From Bacteroides sp. (GTDB lineage: Bacteria; Bacteroidota; Bacteroidia; Bacteroidales; Muribaculaceae), in the NCBI GenBank assembly GCA_014801225.1, contig JAAVEO010000015.1:1-64000 (forward strand): DNA of 64,000 bases, given 5' to 3'. Both the position numbers and the translations under genes were made by a program. The first letter of the stretch is position 1. Each line of letters begins with the position of its first letter. This document shows positions 32,799 through 44,590 of this stretch, piece after piece. Under the pieces are notes generated by a model that saw nothing but the letters and a program-made list of their open reading frames with translations, searched no databases and was not told the DNA's origin.

Positions 32799-32927
32799 TA
32801 ACTTTGTGCAATGGCGGAGGCTTCTTCCGAACTTCCGCAATATTGCACATGAAAAGCGCCCCGCCTCTCTCCCGAAAATAGAAACATTTCAGAATATGGG
32901 TACTTACAAATAAATACCCTAACTTTG
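32799..32927 (+). promoter_or_regulatory. Two -7 boxes and a hairpin upstream of the Ter cluster
   Basis: TAACTTTG occurs at 32799-32806 and again at 32920-32927, both matching TAnnTTTG. The second is 39 bases before the first terD start. Between them GTGCAAT (32806-32812) is complementary to ATTGCAC (near 32845), with GCGGAGG and CTTCCGC inside. A transcript from the first box would therefore carry a 5' stem-loop. The 32632-32798 stretch is AT-rich with nothing recognisable. Confidence 0.5.
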
Positions 32928-32966
32928 CATTCAAAGAACAACAAATATTCCTTAAAACAAAATATT

Positions 32967-33527
32967 ATGGCAATCAACCTTCAGAAAGGACAGCGTATTG
33001 AGATCGGCCTTCAGAAAGTCGGTGTAGGTCTCGGCTGGGATCCCAATACAAGCACCGGTTACGACTTCGACCTTGATGCCTCCGCATTCATGCTCGGCGA
33101 CAACAAGAAGCTCCCTCTCGATGAGTTCTTCGTATTTTACAATAATCAAATATCTCCCGATAAGGCTGTGGAATCCTCCGGCGACGACCTTACCGGCGGC
33201 AACAGCGATGGTGGCGATGACGAGACAATCACCGTTGACCTCTCCAAAGTAGACCCCCGCATCAAGGAGATTATTTTCACTGTCACAATACACGAAGCCG
33301 AGCAGCGTCGTCAGAACTTCGGGCAGGTGCACAACTCTTACATCCGCATCTACAACGCCATCACCAACGAGGAGATAGCGAAATACGATCTTGATGAAGA
33401 CTTCTCCATCGAGACAGCCGTAGAGTTCGGACGCCTCTACCTCCGCAACGGTGAATGGAAATTCGAAGCCATGGGCAACGGCTACAAAGGTGGCCTCCAG
33501 TTCTTTGTAGACAAATATGTAGGCTGA
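32967..33527 (+). CDS. TerD-family protein, copy 1
   Basis: TerD proteins are cytosolic beta-sandwich proteins that bind calcium and occur in tellurite-resistance and general stress systems. I start at 32967 (MAINLQKGQRIEI, 186 residues). The sequence shows GLGWDPN and the Ca-binding stretch DFDLDASAFML. An acidic loop SSGDDLTGGNSDGGDDE and the C-terminal DLDEDFSIETAVEFGRLY plus NGEWKFEAMG follow. It opens the twelve-gene cluster. terD copy 2 follows after 46 bases and is clearly a paralogue. Confidence 0.95.
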   Translation: MAINLQKGQRIEIGLQKVGVGLGWDPNTSTGYDFDLDASAFMLGDNKKLPLDEFFVFYNNQISPDKAVESSGDDLTGGNSDGGDDETITVDLSKVDPRIKEIIFTVTIHEAEQRRQNFGQVHNSYIRIYNAITNEEIAKYDLDEDFSIETAVEFGRLYLRNGEWKFEAMGNGYKGGLQFFVDKYVG

Positions 33528-33573
33528 TCAACCCTCGCTGAATAAAAAAACATTTTAACCGCTGATTATTATT

Positions 33574-34128
33574 ATGGCAATCAATCTGGAAAAAGGACAG
33601 AGAGTGGCAGTCGAACTGCCCAAGTTCACTATCGGACTCGGTTGGGACACCAACCAGTCAAGCACCGGCGAAGACTTCGACCTCGACGCTTCCGCTTTCA
33701 TCCTCGGTGAAAACGGTAAGATTCTGGAAGACGAGTATTTCGTATTCTATAACAATCTGCAATCTCCGGATGGAGCAGTGGAGCATACCGGCGACAACCT
33801 TACCGGAGAAGGAGAGGGTGACGACGAGAGTATCAAAATCGACCTCTCCAAAATCGATCCTCGTGCCACAGCTATCAACTTCGTGGTTACAATCCACAAA
33901 GCTGACGAGCGCCGCCAGAACTTCGGACAGGTGCGCAACGCTTTTATCCGCATCTACAATTCCGACACCGGTGAAGAGATACTCCGCTACGACCTTGATG
34001 AGGACTTCTCAATCGAAACAGCTGTGGAATTCGGACGTCTCTACAAGCGTAATGGCGAATGGAAATTCGAAGCCATAGGCACCGGTCAGAAAGCCGGCCT
34101 CGCCGAATATCTCAACAAATACAATTAA
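33574..34128 (+). CDS. TerD-family protein, copy 2
   Basis: This 184-residue paralogue of the preceding gene has the same order of motifs. These are GLGWDTNQSSTGEDFDLDASAF, the acidic loop EHTGDNLTGEGEGDDE, RRQNFGQVRNAFIRIYN and the near-identical C-terminal NGEWKFEAIG. The two proteins probably arose by tandem duplication and may form mixed assemblies. The Asp residues expected to bind Ca2+ are present in both. It is followed at 24 bases by a more divergent TerD. Confidence 0.95.
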   Translation: MAINLEKGQRVAVELPKFTIGLGWDTNQSSTGEDFDLDASAFILGENGKILEDEYFVFYNNLQSPDGAVEHTGDNLTGEGEGDDESIKIDLSKIDPRATAINFVVTIHKADERRQNFGQVRNAFIRIYNSDTGEEILRYDLDEDFSIETAVEFGRLYKRNGEWKFEAIGTGQKAGLAEYLNKYN

Positions 34129-34152
34129 TCATCCCTCAAAATCTGAAATATC

Positions 34153-34818
34153 ATGGCAATCAGACTTGAAAAAGGACAACGTATAAATCTCGAGAAAAAC
34201 AACGGCTCGAAACTCACTGACTTCTGTGTAGGTTGCAACTGGGGCGCGATCGTCACTTCCGGCGGTTTCCTCGGCATGGGCAAAAAGACTCAGGATGTCG
34301 ACCTTGACCTCAGCTGCGTGATGGTAGACGCCAACGGCAATCTAGTAGACCATATCTATTCTCCCCTCTACAAGCACGAATTCCTCGCACGTTACGGCAT
34401 GCCCCCCGGCAAAGTCGACTCCAACGACCGCGCTCTCCATCACAGTGGCGATGACCTCCACGGCGATACCGAAGGCGATGACGGACTCGACAATGAGATT
34501 ATCACAGTAGATCTCAATCGCGTAAGCCCCAATGTGCAGCAGATCTTCTTCTTCCTCAACAACTGCGGCAAAGAGGATTTCTCTCAGATTCCTTACGCCT
34601 CCATCCGTATGTACGAGGGAACTCCTACACATGTGAAAGAGGTATTCGCCTCCTACGACGTAGCTGCCGAGCCCCTTTATCGCGGCACCACAGCCCTCAT
34701 CATGGGTAAGCTCTATCGTCGCGGCGGCGAGTGGAAATTCTCCGCAATCGGCGATGCATATCCCGATCCCAACCTCTGCGAGACAATCGGAAGAATCGTA
34801 AACAATTACGCTAAATAA
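34153..34818 (+). CDS. Divergent TerD-family protein, copy 3
   Basis: At 221 residues this protein is longer than its two neighbours. It keeps the TerD frame: MAIRLEKGQRINLEK, VDLDLSCVMVDANG, HHSGDDLHGDTEGDDG and GGEWKFSAIGDAY. Insertions include GAIVTSGGFLGMGKKTQ near residue 33 and a segment around HEFLARYGMPPGK, which resembles TerX/TerZ-like variants. Acidic calcium-site residues are conserved. It probably has a different partner from copies 1 and 2. Confidence 0.92.
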   Translation: MAIRLEKGQRINLEKNNGSKLTDFCVGCNWGAIVTSGGFLGMGKKTQDVDLDLSCVMVDANGNLVDHIYSPLYKHEFLARYGMPPGKVDSNDRALHHSGDDLHGDTEGDDGLDNEIITVDLNRVSPNVQQIFFFLNNCGKEDFSQIPYASIRMYEGTPTHVKEVFASYDVAAEPLYRGTTALIMGKLYRRGGEWKFSAIGDAYPDPNLCETIGRIVNNYAK

Positions 34819-34839
34819 TACTTTAAAAAAGACAAAATT

Positions 34840-35478
34840 ATGAGAAGACTCCCCGTCTATCTCCTTCTCGACTGCTCCGGCTCCATGTATGGCGAGCCTA
34901 TCGAGGCAGTCAAGAATGGTGTTCAGGTTCTCGTATCCACTTTGCGTCAGGATCCCTACGCTCTTGAGACCGCCTACCTCAGTATCATCACTTTTGACAG
35001 CAGCGCGCAGCAGGTCACTCCTCTTACAGAGCTTTCCGCTTTCCAGCAGCCCAACATCCAGGCAAGCGGTTGCACTGCCCTCGGTGAGGCTCTCTCCCTT
35101 CTCGCCGAGCGAGCCGATCAGGAGGTGGTAAAGACCACTGCCGAAAAGAAAGGTGACTGGAAACCTCTCGTATTCATCATGACCGACGGCGAACCCACTG
35201 ATGACCTCAATAAGGGTATTGCCGATTTCAAGAAAGGTAAGTGGGGTATGGTCGTAGCTTGCGCCGCCGGTGCAGGTGCCAACACTGATACCCTCAAGAA
35301 GATTACAGAGTGCGTGGTCTCTCTCGACACTGCCGACAGCGCCACAATCAAGGCCTTCTTCAAATGGGTATCCGCTTCCGTCAGCTCGGGCAGTATGAAA
35401 GTGGAAGAGACCGGCGCGGAAGCCACTACCCTCAGCGAGCTCCCGCCGCCCCCTCCCGAAGTAAATATCGTAATCTGA
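34840..35478 (+). CDS. von Willebrand factor A domain protein, TerY-like, copy 1
   Basis: The 212-residue protein is essentially one VWA domain. It begins MRRLPVYLLLDCSGSMYGEP, where DCSGS is the MIDAS metal motif DxSxS. The further MIDAS Thr (QASGCTALGEAL) and Asp (FIMTDGEPTDD) are in place. The C-terminus is a short linker ending ELPPPPPEVNIVI. TerY proteins act as metal-dependent protein-protein interaction modules alongside the phosphatase and kinase of Ter systems. It follows terD copy 3 by 21 bases. Confidence 0.92.
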   Translation: MRRLPVYLLLDCSGSMYGEPIEAVKNGVQVLVSTLRQDPYALETAYLSIITFDSSAQQVTPLTELSAFQQPNIQASGCTALGEALSLLAERADQEVVKTTAEKKGDWKPLVFIMTDGEPTDDLNKGIADFKKGKWGMVVACAAGAGANTDTLKKITECVVSLDTADSATIKAFFKWVSASVSSGSMKVEETGAEATTLSELPPPPPEVNIVI

Positions 35479-35488
35479 TTCCTATCCC

Positions 35489-35539
35489 GTATATCTCCTA
35501 TCGGACGCGATATTGCATCGCGCCCGATAGGAGATATAC
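35489..35539 (+). repeat. 23-bp stem-loop between the two tandem VWA genes
   Basis: Bases 35489-35511 pair with 35517-35539, with one G-T pair and a 5-base loop. No T-run follows, and the cluster continues 17 bases later. A processing or mRNA-stability element is therefore more likely than a terminator. Confidence 0.75.
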
Positions 35540-35555
35540 CTAATGCTTAAATCAA

Positions 35556-36191
35556 ATGCGTCGTCTTCCCGTATATATCCTTATCGATACTTCCGGATCC
35601 ATGCATGGCGAACCGATTGAATCCGTGAAAGTGGGTTTGGAAGCTATGATCTCCAGCCTGCGTCAGGATCCTTACGCACTCGAGACCGTCAATATCAGTA
35701 TCATTACATTCGATAGGGAAGTTAAGCAGATTCTTCCCCTTACTCCTCTTGATATGCTTCAGCTTCCGGAAATCACTACTCCGGATAGCGGACCGACACA
35801 TACCGGGCAAGCGCTTAAGATGCTCTGTGAGAGTGTGGATAGGGAAGTTCATTTAAGTACTCCCGACCGTAAAGGCGATTGGATGCCACTTCTCTTCATA
35901 ATGACTGATGGCAAACCATCCGACATTCAGCTCTACAATGAGATGATTCCCGAGGTGAAAAAACGCCATTTTGCCGGTATTGTGGCTTGTGCCGCAGGTA
36001 TGAAAGCAAAGACCGAACCGTTGAAACAACTTACCAAGGATGTATTCACTCTCGATACTCTTGACAGCACATCCTTCAAGAAATTCTTCAAATGGATGTC
36101 AGATACTATTGGTGTCGGCAACCGCAGTATCGGAGCTACTGACGATCTTGTGCTTCCGCCCCCGCCGGCCGAAGTAAATGTAGTATGCTGA
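35556..36191 (+). CDS. von Willebrand factor A domain protein, TerY-like, copy 2
   Basis: This 211-residue paralogue of the preceding VWA protein has an intact MIDAS: DTSGSMHGEP at residues ~10, a Thr in DSGPTHTGQAL and the Asp in MTDGKPSD. Its end, VLPPPPAEVNVVC, closely repeats the tail of copy 1 although the intervening linker differs. This implies a conserved function for the tail. It is separated from copy 1 by a strong hairpin and followed at 21 bases by the AIM24-family gene. Confidence 0.92.
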   Translation: MRRLPVYILIDTSGSMHGEPIESVKVGLEAMISSLRQDPYALETVNISIITFDREVKQILPLTPLDMLQLPEITTPDSGPTHTGQALKMLCESVDREVHLSTPDRKGDWMPLLFIMTDGKPSDIQLYNEMIPEVKKRHFAGIVACAAGMKAKTEPLKQLTKDVFTLDTLDSTSFKKFFKWMSDTIGVGNRSIGATDDLVLPPPPAEVNVVC

Positions 36192-36212
36192 TTAATTTAA
36201 AACATTCACCAA

Positions 36213-36854
36213 ATGAACTGCAAACTCATAGGTCAATTCGTACAGCATCTTGAGGTTACCCTTCTTCCCGGCGAAGATTTTTATGCCGAGAAGGGGTCGG
36301 TGATTTATCTCGAACTTGGTATAGAGAAGGAACTCAGCTTCAACGGCTCCGGACTTGGTCGCCTTATCGGAGCGAAACTCTCCGGAGAATCTCTTTTCAT
36401 CCTGCGCCTGTATAATGTCACTCAGACTCCTCGTAAAGTAGTGATTGGTAGCCGGTTTGGTATGCTTCCCGTGAAACTCCAGGGAGAGACTATGATATGT
36501 CATCGAGGTGTCTACGTTGGCTCAAGCCATCGTGTGAATGTCACTACCAAATTCTCTATTGCCGGCCTCACCGGAGGTATGGGCTTGCGACTCCAGAAGA
36601 TACAGGGCTCCGCTACCGTTTTTCTTGATACCAAGGGAACTCCGATAACAATCAATTTGGCTCACGGAGAGACCATTGAAGTTGATGAGAACCATATCAT
36701 CGCACTCCGTAATATCGCTGAGCATCAGATACAGTCAAATTGGTCGCTTGGCAACCTTTTGGGAGGGGAGGGGCTGAGCATGATGAGAATCATAGGCCCC
36801 GGCACAGTATTTCTCTCCCCCAGTAAATTCATGCCCGAACCTGTCGTTGGATAA
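36213..36854 (+). CDS. AIM24/TIGR00266-family protein
   Basis: This 213-residue beta-rich protein resembles the AIM24 family (double-psi or tryptophan-RNA-binding-like barrel repeats). Visible features are VTLLPGEDFYAEKGSVIYLE, a Gly-rich SFNGSGLGRLIGAKLSGES and the second repeat GSSHRVNVTTKFS...GLTGGMGLRL. The end is GPGTVFLSPSKF. AIM24-like proteins are often encoded beside TerD, TerB and VWA genes. Their role is undefined, with membrane-associated scaffolding among the proposals. No signal peptide is present, so it should be cytosolic. Confidence 0.82.
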   Translation: MNCKLIGQFVQHLEVTLLPGEDFYAEKGSVIYLELGIEKELSFNGSGLGRLIGAKLSGESLFILRLYNVTQTPRKVVIGSRFGMLPVKLQGETMICHRGVYVGSSHRVNVTTKFSIAGLTGGMGLRLQKIQGSATVFLDTKGTPITINLAHGETIEVDENHIIALRNIAEHQIQSNWSLGNLLGGEGLSMMRIIGPGTVFLSPSKFMPEPVVG

Positions 36855-36922
36855 GCCTGCGGCAAACTCCCTTTTTAAGACAATAGAATGATTTGATTTG
36901 TGCATGACATAACCAAAATGAT

Positions 36923-38860
36923 ATGAGCATATTTGATAATCTTTTCGGTAAAAAGCGAAAGCAGAAGAATGGGAAAGCCACTCCCGGCTCTAAGGAGGAT
37001 TTATCTGTTTCCGAGGAGTTCAATCTTCCGCCTGACGGAGCTTTGACCGATACTCAGCAAGATGTGTTGGATTATCTCACAAATAATCCGCAGGGCATTA
37101 CCTTCGTGCATGGTAAGGCCGGATGCGGGAAGACCTGGCTCATACGTCAGATAGAATCCTCTGTTCCCGGGTGTCAGGTGCTTGCCCCTACTAATCTTGC
37201 CGCCTCTCTATATCATAGCGCACGCACACTTCATTCATTCTTTTATGGTGCCTTCAATGATATCAACGAGGGTATCCAGAATCCTGCTACCCTTGATCCA
37301 TCCAAGACATCAAAGATAGCAGCCGTACTTCATGGGGTGAATCTCCTCGTTTTTGATGAGGTATCAATGATTCGCTCGGATACGTTTGAAATGATGAATC
37401 GTATTTGTCGCATGGTGCGTGGTTCCTCCTTGCCGTTCGGCGGTATCCCGATAGTAGTGGTGGGCGATCTCTTTCAACTTCCCCCGGTAGTAAGCGATGA
37501 TGCTATCTACAAGTATCTACTCAGGGAATACGGAGGAGTCAATTTCTTTGATAGCCATGTCGTGAAAGACAATATTGATGATATAAAGTTCTTTGAGCTT
37601 CATCAGTCTTACCGTCAGAAGAATGATCCGAAGTTTGTCACTCTCCTCGACGCCTTCCGGCAGCCTCTCTCTCCGGAGATGAAGCTTCGTCTTATTCAGA
37701 ATCTCAACTCCCGTATCACTGATACTCTTCCCGACGATGCCGTCTTTATCGCTTCGTCGAATGAGGAGGTGAACAGAGTGAATTCCGTAAAACTGGATTC
37801 CCTCCCCGGTCAGGAAGAGCGTCTTGTGGCAAAATATTCCATACGCCTGAAAGGATCCGACCGCCATATTGAGATTTCTCATGATGACCTCCCCTCCGAT
37901 AAGGATATCGAACCAATATCCCTTCCTTCCTCATTTGATGCGGTGCTTCGCGTAAAACCCGGTGCTCGGGTGATAATGACCGCCAGCAGCAAAAGGGCAG
38001 GATATAGCAACGGAGATTTCGGAGTAGTGCAGGATTTTACGGATGGCGTATTCCATATTCGACTTGACGACGGCAGGGAAGTCTCATGCCCGGATATGAA
38101 TGATCCTTACCGTTTCAATCATCTCTCCAATTATCGTTATGAAATGGCTTATGATCCGATGACTCACTCCGTAGAGAGGCTTACTCCTTATGTGCAGCGC
38201 ACTGTGCAGTATCCCGTGAAGCTCGCCTACGCTTTCACAATCCATAAGTCGCAGGGACAGACCTACGATAAGGTGATTCTCGACCTCAACAGTCATATCT
38301 TCGCCCCCGGTCAGCTTTATGTGGCTCTCAGCCGCGCCAAATCGCTCGACGGACTTTACCTCACCAAGAATATCAGCTACAGCGATATAATTTCCGATGA
38401 GTCGGTATTTACCTTTCTCGACAGTATCCGTACTATAGAGAAGGGGCGCCGACACAATTCTACTTCCGCTCCATCTCCTTCTCCTCAGCCCTCTCCCGCT
38501 TCTCCGCCATCATCTAACGCAGCTGCGATTGAGAATCCTCGCTGTGATGACTTTATCAGCTTCGTCCGGATGAATGAGGAGAATGATTCGATCAGAGATT
38601 TTCTCTGCCATACTCTTGAAAGCTATAAAACAGTGTTCGCTCTCGGAGACATGGCGTTGGCTTTCGATGAATTGCATAAGACTATCGATCTTATCACCGG
38701 AACTTATATCACCGATCGCTACGAATCTCTTCTTGCAAAGATGAACTCTGCTTCCGCCTCGGATGCCGACTGTCGTTTTAATCTCAATGCTATCTTCGAG
38801 ATTTATACCGATGTGATACATTCTCCCCGTCAGCAGGTAATCTCTGATAATTTCAAATAA
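36923..38860 (+). CDS. PIF1/RecD-like superfamily 1 helicase
   Basis: The 645-residue protein begins with a basic tail. A complete SF1 helicase core follows: Walker A GKAGCGKT (residues 64-71), APTNLAA (motif Ia) and LLVFDEVSM (Walker B, D145/E146). Motif III is [12 protein letters not shown], and later come [15 protein letters not shown] (motif V region, about 435-449) and LYVALSRAK (motif VI, about 465-473). After a Ser/Pro linker a ~100-residue helical domain follows with no recognised match. It likely unwinds DNA 5' to 3' like PIF1 or RecD2. Within a Ter cluster it represents the DNA-processing arm. Confidence 0.9.
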
Positions 38861-38899
38861 TTAAAACAATAATTCTGACACGATTAAAAACACAACGCT

Positions 38900-39952
38900 A
38901 TGCGTAAACTCCCTATCTATTTCCTCGTGGATATCTCCGAATCAATGGTGGGTACTCCCATCGAACAGGTGCAGGAAGGTATGCGCACGATTATCCAGAA
39001 TCTCAGGGTTGACCCCTATGCCCTTGAGACTGTCTATGTCTCCATTATCGGTTTTGCGGGTAAGGCCAAAATGCTTTCCCCCCTGACGGAGCTGTACAAA
39101 TTCTATCCCCCTACGTTTCCCATCGGTGGGGGGACATCTCTCGGTGCCGGTCTTGAGGCTTTGATGAATGATATCGATGCTTCCGTGCAGAAGTCTACTC
39201 TTGAACATAAGGGCGACTGGAAACCTATCATTTTCCTCTTCACCGACGGCAATCCTACCGATAACTATGCTGCCGCTTTCAAGCGATGGAATGATAAATA
39301 TCGCAAGCATTGTAATCTTGTAGCCATATCCATCGGCGACAACGTGAATGTGCTCACACTCTCTCAGCTTACGGATGATGTGCTCCTCCTGAAAGATACC
39401 GATGCGGAATCTTTCACCAAGTTCTTCAAATGGGTCACAGCCTCCATCAAGAGTACCAGTGTCTCAGTCAGCGAACAGCAGAACGATGGCCTGAAACTTG
39501 CTCCTACCTCCGGCATTAACCTGGAGAAGGTGGATACTCGCGAGTGTCGCGCAACCGGCACAGTGGATGAGAATTTCGCCGTTCTTCATGCCCGCTGTCA
39601 GACTACAAAGAATGATTACTTGATTAAATATGCCCGCCGTCTCCCTTCCGGGGAGGGGATGGAAATGTTTGCTTCAAGCGACTTCAAACTGGTCGGAGCT
39701 TATCCTATCGACAAGGATAGCTATTCCGCCCTCTCTTCCGCCCATAAGGCCTCTATCAATTCAAGATCTTTGGTAGGAGTGCCCACATGTCCTTGCTGCG
39801 GCAATCAGATCGGAGCGGTGATGTGTGAGTGTGGCCATCTTTTCTGTGTGAGTCTTGAGTCTCGTGTGAATAAATGTCCCTGGTGTGGTTTGGAGGGAAC
39901 GGTAGGCAACTGTGGTGCCGAAGGAATGAATATCTCTCGCGGGCAAGGATAA
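38900..39952 (+). CDS. VWA domain protein with C-terminal zinc ribbon, TerY-C type
   Basis: The 350-residue protein has an N-terminal VWA domain (about 1-190). Its MIDAS is DISESMVGTP, with a Thr in GGGTSLGAGL and FTDGNPTDN. A linker, then a beta-rich middle region (about 215-290), follow. At about residues 297-330 there is a double zinc ribbon: CPCCGNQIG, CECGHLFC and CPWCG. This VWA-plus-zinc-ribbon form is the TerY variant that travels with a PP2C phosphatase and a kinase, exactly the next two genes. It likely bridges the signalling enzymes to a target. Confidence 0.92.
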   Translation: MRKLPIYFLVDISESMVGTPIEQVQEGMRTIIQNLRVDPYALETVYVSIIGFAGKAKMLSPLTELYKFYPPTFPIGGGTSLGAGLEALMNDIDASVQKSTLEHKGDWKPIIFLFTDGNPTDNYAAAFKRWNDKYRKHCNLVAISIGDNVNVLTLSQLTDDVLLLKDTDAESFTKFFKWVTASIKSTSVSVSEQQNDGLKLAPTSGINLEKVDTRECRATGTVDENFAVLHARCQTTKNDYLIKYARRLPSGEGMEMFASSDFKLVGAYPIDKDSYSALSSAHKASINSRSLVGVPTCPCCGNQIGAVMCECGHLFCVSLESRVNKCPWCGLEGTVGNCGAEGMNISRGQG

Positions 39953-39977
39953 ATCTAATTTCAAAACAAAATAGAAA

Positions 39978-41423
39978 ATGAAAAGCAATCAACGTGATAA
40001 TTTCCGCAAGAATAATTGCGTTCGTCGCCTTAATGAATCGGCTCGCCGCTTTGACTTGGTGATGAATGCCGCCGGAGTGCCCGCATGCGACAAGGAGATT
40101 TTCTTGAAATGGGCGATTGGCACAATGTGGAACAACTTCAAAGAAGAACGTATGAACCAAAGAATCGTGATAGAAAATAAGATGAGGGATCTCGGACTCC
40201 GCTTGCCAAACGGTACGGCAAAGAAAGAGTATAATACCGCCTTCAATCTTCCCCTTGATGAAATATCCAACGTCCGAATCGACGGAGCGGAGGAACTTGG
40301 CCTTGAACTGAAAATAGGGGAGGACGGCATCTGCACTCTCTGCGGTGTGCCTGCTGAATCCGGAGATTTCACACTTTATCTCAGATATAGCACTCTGGAA
40401 GGTGAACCCGACTCTGAGCTCGCGATTCCCATAGCGTTTAATCCGAATCCCCGCGACCTCTGGAAGAATATCCCCACTGACTCCGGTATCCCCTACTATA
40501 AGGAGGACTCAGAGTGTGCCTACTTAAAAGTGGAAGCCGGAGCTGATGGAGAGCCGAAGAAGGATATTGTGGCCGCAAGCCAACGTGGCCGCAGTCATGC
40601 TCAGGAGGGTAGACCTCGCGATGATCATTTTTCTCTGTTTCACTGTGATGAATCTGATTGGTATATCATTGCTGTGGCCGACGGCGCCGGCTCTGCAAAG
40701 TATTCTCGCGAAGGCTCCAGAATAGCGTGCGAGACAGTCACGGAGCATTGTAAGGAACTTCTTCTTGATAATCCTGATTTCGAGACCGCTATCCGGGAGT
40801 ATCAAGCTGATAAGAATGATACTGACAAGCGGAGTGCACTGACTAATTGGGTACAGAAAATTGTTCTCAAAGGTGCGAAAAAAGCCCATGACAGAATAAA
40901 TGAAGTGGCAAATCGGGAGGAGGGCCTCCGACCCAAGGATTTTGCAACTACGCTGATGTTCGCTATCTGTAAAAAGTACGAGTTCGGATGGTACCTTGCC
41001 TCTTTCTGGGTTGGTGACGGCGCTATGTGTGTTTATGATGAAAATACCAAGAGTGCCAAATTGCTCGGAACTCCCGATGAGGGTGAATACTCCGGTCAAA
41101 CTCGATTCTTGACAATGCCGGAGATATTCCGTAGTCCGGATGTGTATAGTCGTCTTCGTATGGGAATTATTCCCGATTTCACAGCTCTCTTCCTTATGAG
41201 CGACGGAGTCTCCGATCCTATGTTCGAGACCGATCGTAATCTTAACGATTACACCAAGTGGAAAGAGTTCTACGATAATCTGAAAACCGGTTTCCCCGCT
41301 GATGAGATACCCGGTGTAGATCTTTCCGATGATAATGAGGAGGCAAAAGATCAACTTCTCAAATGGCTCGACTTCTGGAGTCCCGGAAATCATGATGATC
41401 GTACAATTGCAATCCTTTACTAA
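39978..41423 (+). CDS. PP2C-family protein phosphatase with N-terminal extension
   Basis: Residues ~200-481 form a PP2C-type Ser/Thr phosphatase. Metal-binding residues are seen in GRPRDDHFS (D215, D216), VADGAGSAKYSREG (D235), LMSDGVSD and HDDRTIAIL (D473, D474). The N-terminal 200 residues are unusual: a helical part, then an Ig-like beta segment (about 87-155, LPLDEISNVRIDGAEELGLE). The kinase gene begins 6 bases after the stop, so the opposing enzymes are produced together. With the preceding VWA-zinc-ribbon protein this is a TerY-phosphatase-kinase triad. Confidence 0.92.
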   Translation: MKSNQRDNFRKNNCVRRLNESARRFDLVMNAAGVPACDKEIFLKWAIGTMWNNFKEERMNQRIVIENKMRDLGLRLPNGTAKKEYNTAFNLPLDEISNVRIDGAEELGLELKIGEDGICTLCGVPAESGDFTLYLRYSTLEGEPDSELAIPIAFNPNPRDLWKNIPTDSGIPYYKEDSECAYLKVEAGADGEPKKDIVAASQRGRSHAQEGRPRDDHFSLFHCDESDWYIIAVADGAGSAKYSREGSRIACETVTEHCKELLLDNPDFETAIREYQADKNDTDKRSALTNWVQKIVLKGAKKAHDRINEVANREEGLRPKDFATTLMFAICKKYEFGWYLASFWVGDGAMCVYDENTKSAKLLGTPDEGEYSGQTRFLTMPEIFRSPDVYSRLRMGIIPDFTALFLMSDGVSDPMFETDRNLNDYTKWKEFYDNLKTGFPADEIPGVDLSDDNEEAKDQLLKWLDFWSPGNHDDRTIAILY

Positions 41424-41429
41424 CAAAAT

Positions 41430-42905
41430 ATGGCAAAGACAATAAAACTTACAGCTTCCGACGGCTCTCCCGTAGAGTTCGTTGACGAGATTATCGGTAG
41501 CGGCGCCATGAAGGATGTCTATTTCAGTCCTGATAAAAGCTATGTGGTAGGTTTCTTCCGTACGCCGCAGGATGCCAATGTCAAGGATCGTCTTCAGAAT
41601 ATCGTTGGTACATACCGCGAGAGAATTTTCGGTCAGGTAGGTGGCGATTATTGGGAGAATCTTTTCTGCTGGCCTACGAAGCTTGTGGAGTGGGAGGGTA
41701 AGCTGGGTATTGTCTGCCCGGCCTATCAGAAGCATTTCTTCTTCAAGGATGGTATGTTCAAAGGTAAGGAGAAGGAAGGAAAATGGTTTGCTTCAGCTAA
41801 ACTCCGCAATAAATTCCTTAAGCCCCACGAGAAGGGCACATGGCTTACCCACTATCACATGTGCTTGCAGATTGCGCGAGCTGTGCGCCGTCTTCATGCT
41901 GCCGGTCTGGCTCATTCCGACCTCTCTTACAAGAATGTACTTGTCGATCCCGAAACAGGTCGCGCCGCCGTCATCGACTGTGATGGTCTCGTGGTACCCG
42001 GCAAATATCCCCCCGATGTAGTCGGCACTCCCGATTTCATAGCTCCGGAAGTACTCCAGACCCGCTCTCTCAAGATTGAAGATCCGAATAAGAAGCTCCC
42101 GAGCATCCACACGGATCGTCATGCCCTTGCGGTTTTGATATATATGTATCTTCTCAATCGTCATCCTCTTCGCGGAGGAAAGGTGCATGATCTTGACACT
42201 GCCCGCGATGAGGAACTCTCGATGGGGGAGAAGGCTCTCTTCATCGAGCATCCTACAGATAAGAGCAATCGTCCGAAGGATTTGGAACCCTCGCAACTTC
42301 CGCAGGGTGATGTCGTTAAGCGCCCATATACCATTTGCGGCCCCTATCTTAAGGAACTCTTCGACCGGGCTTTTATCGATGGCCTGCACGACCCCTCCAA
42401 GCGTCCTACCGCCGATGAATGGGAGACGGCTCTTGTAAAGACCACCGATCTTATCCAACCCTGTCAGAACCCCTCTTGTGAGGCCCACTGGTTTGTGTTC
42501 GATAATTCCACCAAGCCGAAGTGTCCTTTTTGCGGCACTGAGTATCACGGTCAGCTACCCGTGTTGAATCTCTATTATAGTCCCGCAAAGGGAAAATTCC
42601 TTCCCGAGAACTATCGTCTGATGGTCTACGACAAGCAGTCGCTATATATGTGGCATGTCAACCGCTTTATCACTCCCAATGAGCGCACTAAACCGGAGGA
42701 TAAGAAACCTGTAGGTGATTTCCACTTCCATAATGGGAAATGGATTCTCATAAATCGCCGGCTTCCTGATATGTGGGATGTCACGGAGCAACCCAAGCGT
42801 CAGATAAAGATAGGAGAGTTTGTCGAACTTACCGAAGGACGTAAGATACTACTCTCCGGTGAAGACGGAGGGCGCCTTATTGTGGTGCAACTCGTGAAGA
42901 ACTGA
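41430..42905 (+). CDS. Atypical protein kinase with zinc ribbon
   Basis: The 491-residue protein has a kinase fold at residues ~17-330. The glycine loop is IGSGAMKDVYF (from 22), the catalytic loop AHSDLSYKNVLVD (H162, D164, N169), and the metal-site equivalent VIDCDGL (D183). GTPDFIAPEVL follows as the activation-segment end. Catalytic Asp, Asn and metal Asp are kept, but no lysine is seen at the usual beta-3 position (SYVVGFFR, 37-44). A four-cysteine ribbon (CQNPSCEAHW and CPFCG, ~347-373) and a ~110-residue beta domain follow. It is the kinase partner of the adjacent PP2C. Confidence 0.9.
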   Translation: MAKTIKLTASDGSPVEFVDEIIGSGAMKDVYFSPDKSYVVGFFRTPQDANVKDRLQNIVGTYRERIFGQVGGDYWENLFCWPTKLVEWEGKLGIVCPAYQKHFFFKDGMFKGKEKEGKWFASAKLRNKFLKPHEKGTWLTHYHMCLQIARAVRRLHAAGLAHSDLSYKNVLVDPETGRAAVIDCDGLVVPGKYPPDVVGTPDFIAPEVLQTRSLKIEDPNKKLPSIHTDRHALAVLIYMYLLNRHPLRGGKVHDLDTARDEELSMGEKALFIEHPTDKSNRPKDLEPSQLPQGDVVKRPYTICGPYLKELFDRAFIDGLHDPSKRPTADEWETALVKTTDLIQPCQNPSCEAHWFVFDNSTKPKCPFCGTEYHGQLPVLNLYYSPAKGKFLPENYRLMVYDKQSLYMWHVNRFITPNERTKPEDKKPVGDFHFHNGKWILINRRLPDMWDVTEQPKRQIKIGEFVELTEGRKILLSGEDGGRLIVVQLVKN

Positions 42906-42951
42906 TCTCACACTCAATCTATCCGCCAACTCCTCTTTATACTTTTATCTT

Positions 42952-44367
42952 ATGCCGAAAGTTATTAATAAGAAAATTGCCGTTGCGCGCATTTTCAATG
43001 ATCTCATCAAAGCCGACCGCATTGTGGATACGGGGGAGATGGATTTCTGGGCAAAGGTGTGTGAAAACTATAATATCGACCGTGAAAGCCGTATAAAGGC
43101 GCGTGATGTATCTTTCGCCGAGGCTCTGGCTTTTTGCGCTGCCAACCGTACAGGCCTCCGAGAGGACCTTCTCGGTGATTGTAAGGCCATGACCGTGAGT
43201 GATGGATTCTGTGCTCATTCAGAGGCTCTCCTCATGATTGCCCTTATCACAATGCTTGATCCTGCGACTCCTTTCAAAGGGGAGGTGTTTTCTATTCCAA
43301 GGTCGAGTTTCGATATTGATATCTCTACAGCTCTTTATGTAGAGGATAAATATGATGAAGGCTGCAACACCGAGATTCTCGCAAAGTATCGGTCAATATT
43401 CAAGGAGTTTCAGTTGGCCGGATTCCACTTCGTCTATATTCCCAAGATAATCGACCATTATCAGAGCACCGACCCGGCTCTCTTCAAGGATATCCTCTCA
43501 TTCCTCGCTCCCTCTATAAGTGAGTCGGGGCTTGAGAATATCTATGCCTCTCTTATGAATATGTCCACAGGCACTTTCTGCAAAGATCTCCTCTGCAATA
43601 AATGTGGCATAACCGAACTTCGCAACACAACTCCCTCTCTCTTCATAAAGATAGGTAACAGTTATGTCGGTGAGGATCAGTATGCCAACTACCTCAAAAT
43701 AGATGTGGAGGGTGATATCCTCCTCACGGTGCAGACCTTTCTCGATCTTTTCACGGATATGCTCAGCAGTGATATATATGTGGTAAACACTTCGGAGGAA
43801 CGTGACAATCAATTCCATTTCCACGGCTTCTATAAGCAACTTCTTGATATTTTCCTTATCCAGAAAAATATCAGAAGTACGGTATTGCTGGATCCATATA
43901 AGTCGAAGATTATATTTCCTGATGCAGATTTAAACCTTGGTGATGTCAATCGTCGCGAAAGAGCGCTTTACGTGCTCCTTCTTTGCTATGGCGAGGAAGG
44001 TGTGAATTTCAATAAGCCCAAGAGCCTCAAAGATATGGAGGAGTATGACCGAAGAATGCAGGAGATTCGATGTCGCTACCGTGATATTTATGATATGTTC
44101 GGTGGTGATGCAGAGGAGGCTCCCGATATTACCGTAGCTGAGACTCGTCGTCCTATTTTTAGTCGTCTTAACAAGGCTCTCAGTAATCAAGAATTCTCCC
44201 GACTTTATAATCAGAAAGACTACAACTTTATCAAATCAAAGAACGGAACATATTCGATACATCTCGATCCCGACCTTATTTTCGTTGAGGGGCGTGATAA
44301 TAAACCTAAGGTTCCGCTTAAAGATTCGCGCCTTTATGCAAAATGGTGTGAAGGTAAGAAGAAATAA
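42952..44367 (+). CDS. TerB-domain protein with a large C-terminal region
   Basis: The first ~110 residues resemble the helical TerB domain: RIFNDLIKADRIVDTGEMDFW, an acidic AD-x-x-VD-x-GE pattern, then SDGFCAHSEALLMIALITML. TerB binds metals and interacts with TerC or TerD in other systems. The remaining 360 residues have no match I recognise. They include LQNYL-like repeats, a conserved-looking DPYKSKIIFPDADLN and a C-terminal RLYNQKDYNFIKSKNGTYSIHLDPDLIFV. Its place at the end of the cluster suggests it senses or delivers the stress signal. The TerB call is moderate. Confidence 0.72.
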   Translation: MPKVINKKIAVARIFNDLIKADRIVDTGEMDFWAKVCENYNIDRESRIKARDVSFAEALAFCAANRTGLREDLLGDCKAMTVSDGFCAHSEALLMIALITMLDPATPFKGEVFSIPRSSFDIDISTALYVEDKYDEGCNTEILAKYRSIFKEFQLAGFHFVYIPKIIDHYQSTDPALFKDILSFLAPSISESGLENIYASLMNMSTGTFCKDLLCNKCGITELRNTTPSLFIKIGNSYVGEDQYANYLKIDVEGDILLTVQTFLDLFTDMLSSDIYVVNTSEERDNQFHFHGFYKQLLDIFLIQKNIRSTVLLDPYKSKIIFPDADLNLGDVNRRERALYVLLLCYGEEGVNFNKPKSLKDMEEYDRRMQEIRCRYRDIYDMFGGDAEEAPDITVAETRRPIFSRLNKALSNQEFSRLYNQKDYNFIKSKNGTYSIHLDPDLIFVEGRDNKPKVPLKDSRLYAKWCEGKKK

Positions 44368-44389
44368 AAGAACTAAAAATTATAAAATT

Positions 44390-44548
44390 ATGAAAATACC
44401 CGGAGTTAGTTTCTCGCTCAATAGAGCGCTCGGAATCACCAAAGCAAAGCAGAATTTCGCTCGCAAGACAGGTATCCCCACTACCAAAGCCGGTCTGGAA
44501 CGCAAGATCGGCAAGATGGTAATCAACGCCATCATAGGTAAGAAATAA
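44390..44548 (+). CDS. 52-residue basic protein at the end of the Ter cluster
   Basis: This small gene starts at 44390, 22 bases after the TerB gene. An earlier in-frame start would overlap that gene. The product (MKIPGVSFSLNRALGITKAK onward) is highly basic with many Lys/Arg. It contains the segment KTGIPTTKAGLERKIGK and ends in a short hydrophobic VINAIIGKK. It has no signal peptide. The composition fits a nucleic-acid or ribosome ligand, or a membrane-active peptide. I do not know its function. The terminator hairpin overlaps its stop codon. Confidence 0.65.
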   Translation: MKIPGVSFSLNRALGITKAKQNFARKTGIPTTKAGLERKIGKMVINAIIGKK

Positions 44549-44590
44549 GCACAAGGGGGCCCGGCTTCAAGCCGGGCCCCTTGTGCTTAT
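44545..44590 (+). terminator. Terminator of the Ter cluster
   Basis: A ~22-bp stem centred near 44567 pairs GCACAAGGGGGCCCGGCTT with AAGCCGGGCCCCTTGTGC, with one bulged G. It includes the stop codon of the 52-residue protein. The T-tail is weak, but the stem is very GC-rich. Confidence 0.8.

What the first reader, a model, noticed from the sequence alone, without database searches (positions are those of the whole stretch)
32799..44590. Twelve-gene Ter-type stress system joining TerD sensors, a VWA-phosphatase-kinase triad and a PIF1-like helicase
The sequence shows twelve consecutive plus-strand genes with gaps of 6-77 bases, one promoter region and one terminator. They encode three TerD proteins, two plain VWA proteins, AIM24, a helicase, VWA-zinc-ribbon, PP2C, kinase, TerB and a small basic protein. 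TerY-phosphatase-kinase triads and DNA-processing partners are known from comparative studies of Ter systems. Here no TerC membrane component or TerA lies in the cluster, and a PIF1/RecD-like helicase sits between VWA genes. I infer a phospho-regulated DNA-protection or anti-phage response triggered by metal or envelope stress.
Basis: partly seen in the sequence, partly recalled or inferred. Interest (0 to 1): 0.82.

Follow-up and report, generated by a model that had tools for sequence, protein, structure and literature searches.

The report
Gut-bacterium stress operon with optional helicase
A gut Bacteroidales bacterium carries a movable set of stress-sensing genes of the known TerD/TerY kinase-phosphatase type; the new part is an optional DNA helicase cassette that keeps company with this system, which hints that the stress signal may reach the DNA.

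Summary
The twelve-gene plus-strand operon is real. Ten genes match their named families by Pfam: three TerD, two VWA, AIM24, a Pif1 helicase, TerY (VWA plus TerY_C), PP2C and a kinase. Gene 11 matches no TerB model; its predicted fold suggests a TerB-like N-domain and an OmpR-like winged helix. Gene 12 belongs to a small basic family not specific to Ter loci.

The core (TerD, VWA, VWA, TerY, PP2C, kinase) is the known TerY-P system; its kinase is about 63% identical to those of enterobacterial plasmids.

Here it sits between glnA3 and dus, which are adjacent in three congeners.

The helicase is optional: 8 of 80 related loci, two of them partial. It forms a distinct Pif1 subfamily with its own C-terminal domain. 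Of 19 genus genomes with it, 18 have TerD; of 84 tested genomes without it, 29 do. It also occurs beside a divergent TerY-P triad. Six of 19 copies have no Ter gene in the stretch read.

In relatives a PMCA-type Ca2+ pump often follows the kinase (40 of 63 loci); TerC was found in 1 of 80 loci.

I read it as a Ca2+/metal-responsive phospho-switch with an optional DNA effector. Anti-phage action is unproven.

The parts
32920..32927 (+). promoter-like TAACTTTG element, 47 bases before TerDa
   Evidence: sequence; 29 of 51 loci with TAnnTTTG within 150 bases, 4.5 expected by shuffling
32967..33527 (+). TerD a
   Evidence: PF02342 E 3.1e-71
33574..34128 (+). TerD b
   Evidence: PF02342 E 6.5e-76
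34153..34818 (+). TerD c, divergent
   Evidence: PF02342 E 9.5e-31
34840..35478 (+). VWA a, DxSxS motif present
   Evidence: PF00092 E 1.8e-12; motif
35556..36191 (+). VWA b, DxSxS motif present
   Evidence: PF00092 E 3e-13; motif
36213..36854 (+). AIM24 domain protein
   Evidence: PF01987 E 7.4e-37
36923..38860 (+). Pif1-type SF1B helicase with its own C-terminal domain
38528..38848 (+). C-terminal domain that marks the helicase subfamily
   Evidence: profile A4
38900..39952 (+). TerY: VWA plus TerY_C metal-binding domain
   Evidence: PF15616 E 2.3e-38, PF00092 E 1.1e-12
39978..41423 (+). PP2C phosphatase with an N-terminal extension of about 200 residues
   Evidence: PF13672 E 9.1e-42 over residues 203-435
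41430..42905 (+). Ser/Thr-type kinase with a C-terminal zinc-ribbon-like cysteine set
   Evidence: PF00069 E 3.3e-12; cysteines 345, 350, 365, 368 invariant in 6 sequences
42952..44367 (+). gene 11: suggested TerB-like N-domain, middle part, suggested OmpR/PhoB-like winged-helix C-domain
44390..44548 (+). 52-aa basic protein, not Ter-specific
   Evidence: family in 35 of 149 family genomes, the window's own included
44546..44589 (+). strong terminal hairpin
   Evidence: -38.6 kcal/mol, z -8.6

Best explanation
This is a horizontally moving Bacteroidales version of the TerD/TerY-P stress system. Shown: gene content, recurrent order, catalytic motifs present, a position between two housekeeping genes that are adjacent in three congeners, and an optional AIM24-Pif1 cassette whose helicase subfamily keeps company with TerD. 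Inferred: TerD proteins bind Ca2+ or another metal when the envelope, redox state or ion balance is disturbed. The two VWA proteins and TerY act as metal-dependent scaffolds that set the balance between kinase and PP2C. The phosphorylation state is then read out by gene 11 (possibly through a winged helix, that is, on transcription), by a Ca2+-exporting P-type ATPase (linked to the operon in many relatives, elsewhere in this genome), and, where the cassette is present, by the Pif1 helicase. The helicase would be brought by its C-terminal domain to Ter partners to clear or restart replication forks damaged under the stress.
For: Families. Order recurs through 80 kinase-anchored loci and in enterobacterial, Moraxella and Hymenobacter plasmids. 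Empty site: glnA3 and dus adjacent in 3 of the 29 non-self dus loci read. Helicase motifs invariant in 7 sequences; in 197 family genomes two others match at 55 and 61%, all other matches listed at 38% or less. AIM24-helicase adjacency kept when the pair lies elsewhere (L056, L071). Helicase beside a divergent TerY_C/kinase/VWA/PP2C set in L263. TerD in 18 of 19 helicase-bearing genus genomes; within the 101 genomes, 16 of 17 against 29 of 84, Fisher p 4.7e-6. Ca2+ ATPase (TIGR01517 above cut-off in the three proteins tested) within 6 kb downstream on the same strand in 40 of 63 loci.
Confidence: 0.5

Rival explanations
1. It is mainly an anti-phage system: the TerY-P switch senses infection and the helicase acts on phage DNA, as in Shango (TerB, ATPase, helicase) or stand-alone TerY-P defence.
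For: A stand-alone TerY-P system acts against T7-like phages according to PMC7699616 (passage); Shango combines TerB, ATPase and helicase (PMC10250203 passages); TerY-P accompanies CoCoNuT systems (PMC11090510 passages). Patchy presence: TerD in 45 of 101 genus genomes. Huge Bacteroides phages carry TerD and Ca2+ P-type ATPases (PMC12363816 passages). Among 100 flank ORFs of related loci there are single strong matches to PsyrT, PsyrA, DpdF, AbiLi and several methyltransferase models.
Against: The genes annotated on either side of the window copy are housekeeping genes. The ten operon proteins scanned gave only partial matches to the helicase or kinase parts of PADLOC models (for example RecD_like, PDC-S68, PDC-M16A, mad6, PD-T4-6) and one weak pAgo match of gene 12 (E 0.008). 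No defence family matched more than 2 of the 100 flank ORFs, and there is no baseline (346 ORFs were eligible). The kinase has zinc-ribbon-like cysteines, not the OB-fold that PMC11090510 describes for the tested defence version.
Confidence: 0.22
2. The core is an ordinary Ter stress operon and the AIM24-Pif1 pair is a passenger that happens to lie near it, without joint function.
For: Helicase in 8 of 80 loci; 6 of 19 genus copies without a Ter gene in the stretch read; helicase diverges faster (median 60% identity in L049-L082) than VWA a or kinase (91.5%, 90.1%).
Against: Same slot in 6 loci, including the more distant L092; pairing with TerD, VWA, AIM24 or a divergent TerY-P triad when away from the slot; TerD in 18 of 19 helicase genomes; PP2C and gene 11 (67.0%, 59.3%) diverge about as fast.
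Confidence: 0.2
3. It is a tellurite or metal detoxification operon in the narrow sense, as in enterobacterial plasmids.
For: Close kinship of kinase (62.7-65.2%) and VWA a (68-74%) with the three plasmid clusters read.
Against: No TerC in the window or the held assembly (68% complete), and gene 11 does not match the TerB model. [quoted passage not shown]
Confidence: 0.08

Closest known systems
TerY-P triad (Anantharaman, Iyer and Aravind 2012; paper not held, known here through citing papers)
   Same: TerY-like VWA, PP2C, and kinase with C-terminal zinc ribbon in one operon, here with TerD proteins
   Different: two extra VWA genes, AIM24, a Pif1 helicase with its own C-domain, and gene 11; whether that paper already noted such partners could not be checked
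Enterobacterial plasmid ter cluster (pECL_A of Enterobacter cloacae ATCC 13047, L233)
   Same: order VWA-TerD-VWA-TerY-PP2C-kinase; identities 68% VWA a, 54% VWA b, 40% TerY, 34% PP2C, 63% kinase
   Different: the plasmid has terZABCD with TerC and further enzyme genes beside it and no helicase in the triad operon; here three TerD lead and TerC is absent
Hymenobacter monticola plasmid Ter operon (L232)
   Same: TerD x3, VWA x2, PP2C, kinase in the same order
   Different: no TerY_C gene, AIM24 or helicase annotated; a DUF475 protein follows the kinase
Shango
   Same: a TerB-like protein and a helicase in one operon (PMC10250203 passages)
   Different: three genes: TerB-like, ATPase and a DEAD/DEAH helicase; the helicase here is Pif1 and stands with TerD and a kinase-phosphatase pair
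Bacteroides Pif1 helicase (PDB 5ftb, 5fhd)
   Same: SF1B Pif1 core, residues 42-507
   Different: C-terminal domain of about 107 residues, found so far only in this subfamily

Membership tests
TerY-P triad | TerY-like VWA protein, here with the TerY_C domain | tested here: met
   PF00092 and PF15616 over cut-off
TerY-P triad | PP2C phosphatase next to TerY | tested here: met
   PF13672; ADGAG and SDGV motifs
TerY-P triad | kinase with C-terminal zinc ribbon | tested here: met
   PF00069; four cysteines after the kinase domain invariant in 6 sequences; metal binding itself not testable
TerY-P triad | phosphorylation switch controlled by metal | not testable with these tools
   hypothesis in the literature (PMC11090510 passage)
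Classical ter (terZABCDEF) operon | TerD-family proteins | tested here: met
   three PF02342 proteins, the only three in the held assembly
Classical ter (terZABCDEF) operon | TerC membrane protein in the operon | tested here: not met
   none among the twelve genes or in the window; none in the 68% complete assembly
Classical ter (terZABCDEF) operon | tellurite resistance | not testable with these tools
   needs an assay
TerB (PF05099) | match to the TerB model | tested here: not met
   no family at E<=1 for gene 11, nor at E<=0.01 for four homologues
TerB fold | TerB-like helical domain | tested here: inconclusive
OmpR/PhoB winged helix | winged-helix C-domain | tested here: inconclusive
Pif1 helicase | SF1B Pif1 core with Walker motifs | tested here: met
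   PF05970; PDB sequence matches; motifs invariant in 7
Known anti-phage system (PADLOC 2.0.0) | match to a dedicated system model | tested here: inconclusive
   partial helicase- or kinase-domain matches only, and a weak pAgo match (ten of the twelve proteins); the library dates from 2023
Known anti-phage system (PADLOC 2.0.0) | location in a defence island | tested here: not met
   genes annotated within about 5 kb on either side in the window are EF-G, GlnA3, Dus, ODP, VTT, Rpe and one without a family
CoCoNuT type II/III | McrB-type GTPase and CnuH/CnuE partners | tested here: not met
   none among the twelve by Pfam

The most novel reading that the evidence does not exclude
The AIM24-Pif1 pair is a modular DNA-repair or anti-replication effector that plugs through the helicase's C-terminal domain into different TerY-P phospho-switches (the main one and the divergent one in L263). 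A Ca2+/metal signal read by TerD would then control a replication-fork helicase through phosphorylation, alongside a Ca2+ pump, which would be a Ca2+-to-chromosome signalling route in Bacteroidales.
Probability: 0.15. Interest if true: 0.75.

Novelty: new variant of a known kind. Interest (0 to 1): 0.45.

Why it matters
Ter operons are widespread and their native role is still unclear. A helicase subfamily that keeps company with TerD gives a concrete handle on the proposed link between Ter signalling and DNA, and the recurrent Ca2+ pump gives one on the Ca2+ idea. Both can be tested by single-gene deletions in commensal gut Bacteroidales. Huge Bacteroides phages also carry TerD and a Ca2+ ATPase (PMC12363816 passages), so the same axis may matter in phage-host conflict.

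Tried and rejected
Rejected: (a) the helicase is phage-borne: profile A3 gave 61 pattern matches and no relative in viral contigs; phage records match at 29.8-33.5% in the 20 rows listed of 449 records, over at most 72% of the query; the 5 plasmid rows listed of 26 records show 30.9-33.0%. (b) The triad is commonly phage-borne: one weak kinase match in phage records and three weak VWA matches. It is not absent: one contig of viral contigs (L271) holds a VWA, a TerY, a PP2C and the start of a kinase at its end. TerD alone is common in phages, 121 records, all under 60%. (c) The 52-aa gene as a Ter part: 35 of 149 family genomes carry it (the window's own included), and none of the 19 loci examined (up to 1.5 kb each side) has one of the other eleven operon genes next to it, though one has the Ca2+ ATPase; 4 of 80 Ter loci do carry it. 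(d) The sigma-70-type promoter scan: no excess.

Inconclusive: defence enrichment of flanks (no baseline; only the first 25 of 99 matching families were shown); fold of the helicase C-domain (model mean pLDDT 61.7; the structure search covered residues 42-510 only).

Limits: the 80 loci are the best 80 of 291 relatives and overlap the genomes behind the G handles; L074, L063, L064, L051, L059, L056, L099 and L104 look like the same contigs as G067:C14, G405:C3, G409:C131, G422:C52, G417:C57, G471:C21, G058:C78 and G045:C323 by gene places and, for most, contig length. The helicase count of 8 includes L053 (C-domain only) and L071 (cut by the contig end). Dus loci were read up to 1.5 kb to each side. 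Anantharaman et al. 2012 is not held, so whether a Pif1 partner was already noted there could not be checked.

Full report
What is there. The window lies in a 2.09 Mb, 42-contig, 68% complete assembly. The nearest named relatives are Muribaculaceae and Porphyromonadaceae MAGs with kinases up to 94% identical, so the host is probably a Muribaculaceae species (inference). Twelve plus-strand ORFs run from 32967 to 44548 with gaps of 6-77 bases, followed by a strong hairpin. A TAnnTTTG element sits 47 bases before the first ATG, and such an element lies within 150 bases upstream of the first TerD in 29 of 51 loci examined, against 4.5 expected.

The core is known. The kinase profile found 291 relatives in a collection of 84,980 species genomes; the best 80 were kept. 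The order TerD, VWA a, VWA b, TerY, PP2C, kinase recurs through them. Counts in the 80 loci: PP2C 79, VWA b 66, VWA a 63, TerD c 56, TerY 54, Ca2+ ATPase 46, AIM24 39, the gene 11 family 28, helicase 8; many contigs are cut, so these are lower bounds, and the 80 are the nearest relatives. In plasmids the kinase matches 2355 of 72,556 records, mostly Klebsiella, Escherichia, Salmonella and Enterobacter; the enterobacterial rows listed show 62.7-63.7% identity. In pECL_A the order is VWA-TerD-VWA-TerY-PP2C-kinase beside terZABCD, with 68, 54, 40, 34 and 63% identity for VWA a, VWA b, TerY, PP2C and kinase. This is the TerY-P triad described in PMC11090510 (passages) after Anantharaman et al. 2012, which is not held. 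AIM24 as a neighbour of TerD is also known (PMC5822837 passages).

It moves. In G456, G067 and G420 the glnA3 and dus genes are neighbours without the operon between them, 3 of the 29 non-self dus loci read; the other 26 do not show the pair within 1.5 kb. None of the 80 Ter loci showed glnA3, and the only dus match among them (L116) is 26% identical, so they do not share this site. In L263, however, a divergent Ter cluster lies 5 kb past VTT and Rpe, genes that follow the operon in the window, so the wider area may be used more than once. In the genus, TerD occurs in 45 of 101 genomes, 14 of 42 good ones.

Is it tied to Ter? In the 80 loci it occupies the VWA-to-PP2C slot in 6 of 67 loci where that slot can be seen, one of them with the C-domain only. 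In L056 and L071 AIM24 and helicase lie together elsewhere, upstream or on the other strand. Of 19 genus copies, 12 have at least one gene of the system in the stretch read: G000, G405, G471, G422, G417, G409, G469, G456 with AIM24 only, G067 with VWA a, G389 with VWA and c9, G404 with c9 only, and G435 with TerD on the other strand. Six have none (G433, G453, G451, G472, G427, G493; G427 and G493 lie on contigs of 7.2 and 6.1 kb, and G472, G427 and G493 share the same neighbours), and one contig is too short to tell (G413). In G469 (L263) the same helicase follows two TerD genes and precedes a divergent TerY_C, kinase, VWA, PP2C set. All 19 genomes have now been searched for TerD: 18 have it, G456 (80% complete) has not. 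Within the 101 genomes the split is 16 of 17 with the helicase against 29 of 84 without, Fisher p 4.7e-6. The species are related, so the p value overstates the case.

The Ca2+ pump. Downstream of the kinase, 40 of 63 loci with at least 3.5 kb visible carry on the same strand, within 6 kb, a protein that Pfam (one member tested) calls a cation P-type ATPase and NCBIfam (three tested, one of them the window genome's own copy) a PMCA-type Ca2+ ATPase. A TerC query found TerC in 1 of the 80 loci, L101, a record labelled Desulfovibrio. In the window the pump is missing, but the genome has it elsewhere: two hits that lie in a 6.6 kb stretch 98% identical between contigs C9 and C20. Huge Bacteroides phages have been reported to carry TerD genes and, in a separate operon, a Ca2+ P-type ATPase (PMC12363816 passages). 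Ca2+ binding by a Ter protein is stated in PMC8123226 (passage; its subject is cut off, and I take it to be TerD).

How it most likely works. Shown: content, recurrent order, mobility, motifs present, and the helicase-TerD company. Inferred: TerD senses a Ca2+ or metal disturbance, VWA and TerY proteins set the kinase-phosphatase balance, and outputs are gene 11, the Ca2+ pump where present, and the Pif1 helicase where present. Support for a DNA output in other Ter systems comes from papers only: TerY-P with DNA-processing modules (PMC4978471 passages) and about 5-fold higher UVC survival with a minimal ter operon, which those authors put down to less oxidative stress rather than repair (PMC8123226 passages).

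Anti-phage? A stand-alone TerY-P system acts on T7-like phages (PMC7699616 passage), and Shango joins TerB, helicase and ATPase (PMC10250203 passages). For this locus the evidence is mixed: housekeeping genes on either side, only partial helicase or kinase matches to PADLOC models among the ten proteins scanned, and a flank scan in relatives (100 of 346 ORFs) with single strong matches to PsyrT, PsyrA, DpdF, AbiLi and methyltransferases but no baseline. It stays a serious rival.

Novelty in print. No held paper has Pif1, TerD and tellurite resistance together: the rows are ranked by number of terms and the first rows hold only two of the three. TerD with AIM24 is in one held paper, and TerD with P-type ATPase and calcium in seven, six of them listed. 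Most subscription papers are not held, so this is weak evidence of absence.

Verdict. The system is a new variant of a known kind; its fresh points are the helicase subfamily, gene 11 with its possible TerB-like and winged-helix parts, and the recurrent Ca2+ pump.

Noticed in passing
L263 6737-13630: TerD, TerD, the same helicase subfamily, then a divergent TerY_C-only gene, kinase, VWA and PP2C: a second kind of TerY-P triad using the same helicase, 5 kb past VTT and Rpe genes that also lie near the window's operon.
   Followed up: partly
L053 7081-7437: The helicase C-terminal domain stands alone as a 118-aa ORF in the helicase slot between AIM24 and TerY.
   Followed up: partly
L085 13911-16607 and downstream of the kinase in 40 of 63 loci: PMCA-type Ca2+ P-type ATPase as a frequent downstream gene of Bacteroidales Ter operons; huge Bacteroides phages also carry TerD and such an ATPase.
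   Followed up: partly
L086 14585-15412 (cluster c9): A 275-aa protein with N-terminal cysteine pairs and no Pfam or NCBIfam match recurs (7 of 80 loci) beside the gene 11 family or the helicase.
   Followed up: no
L264 7685-10185: Orphan AIM24-helicase pair in G456, the relative with the best-matching dus gene and an empty glnA3-dus site, in which no TerD was found (80% complete).
   Followed up: partly
window 44390-44548; L214-L220: The 52-aa basic protein family is widespread in the family; in several genomes it lies next to a conserved pair of 291-aa and 80-aa proteins of unknown role.
   Followed up: partly
L232 (Hymenobacter plasmid): A Ter operon in the same order is followed by umuD and a Y-family polymerase, then by SIR2 and Piwi genes.
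   Followed up: no
L271: A contig of the viral collection carries VWA, TerY, PP2C and the start of a TerY-P kinase at its end.
   Followed up: partly
L166 and L167: Contigs C9 and C20 of the window's assembly share 6.6 kb at 98% identity, probably a strain-variant contig in the bin.
   Followed up: no
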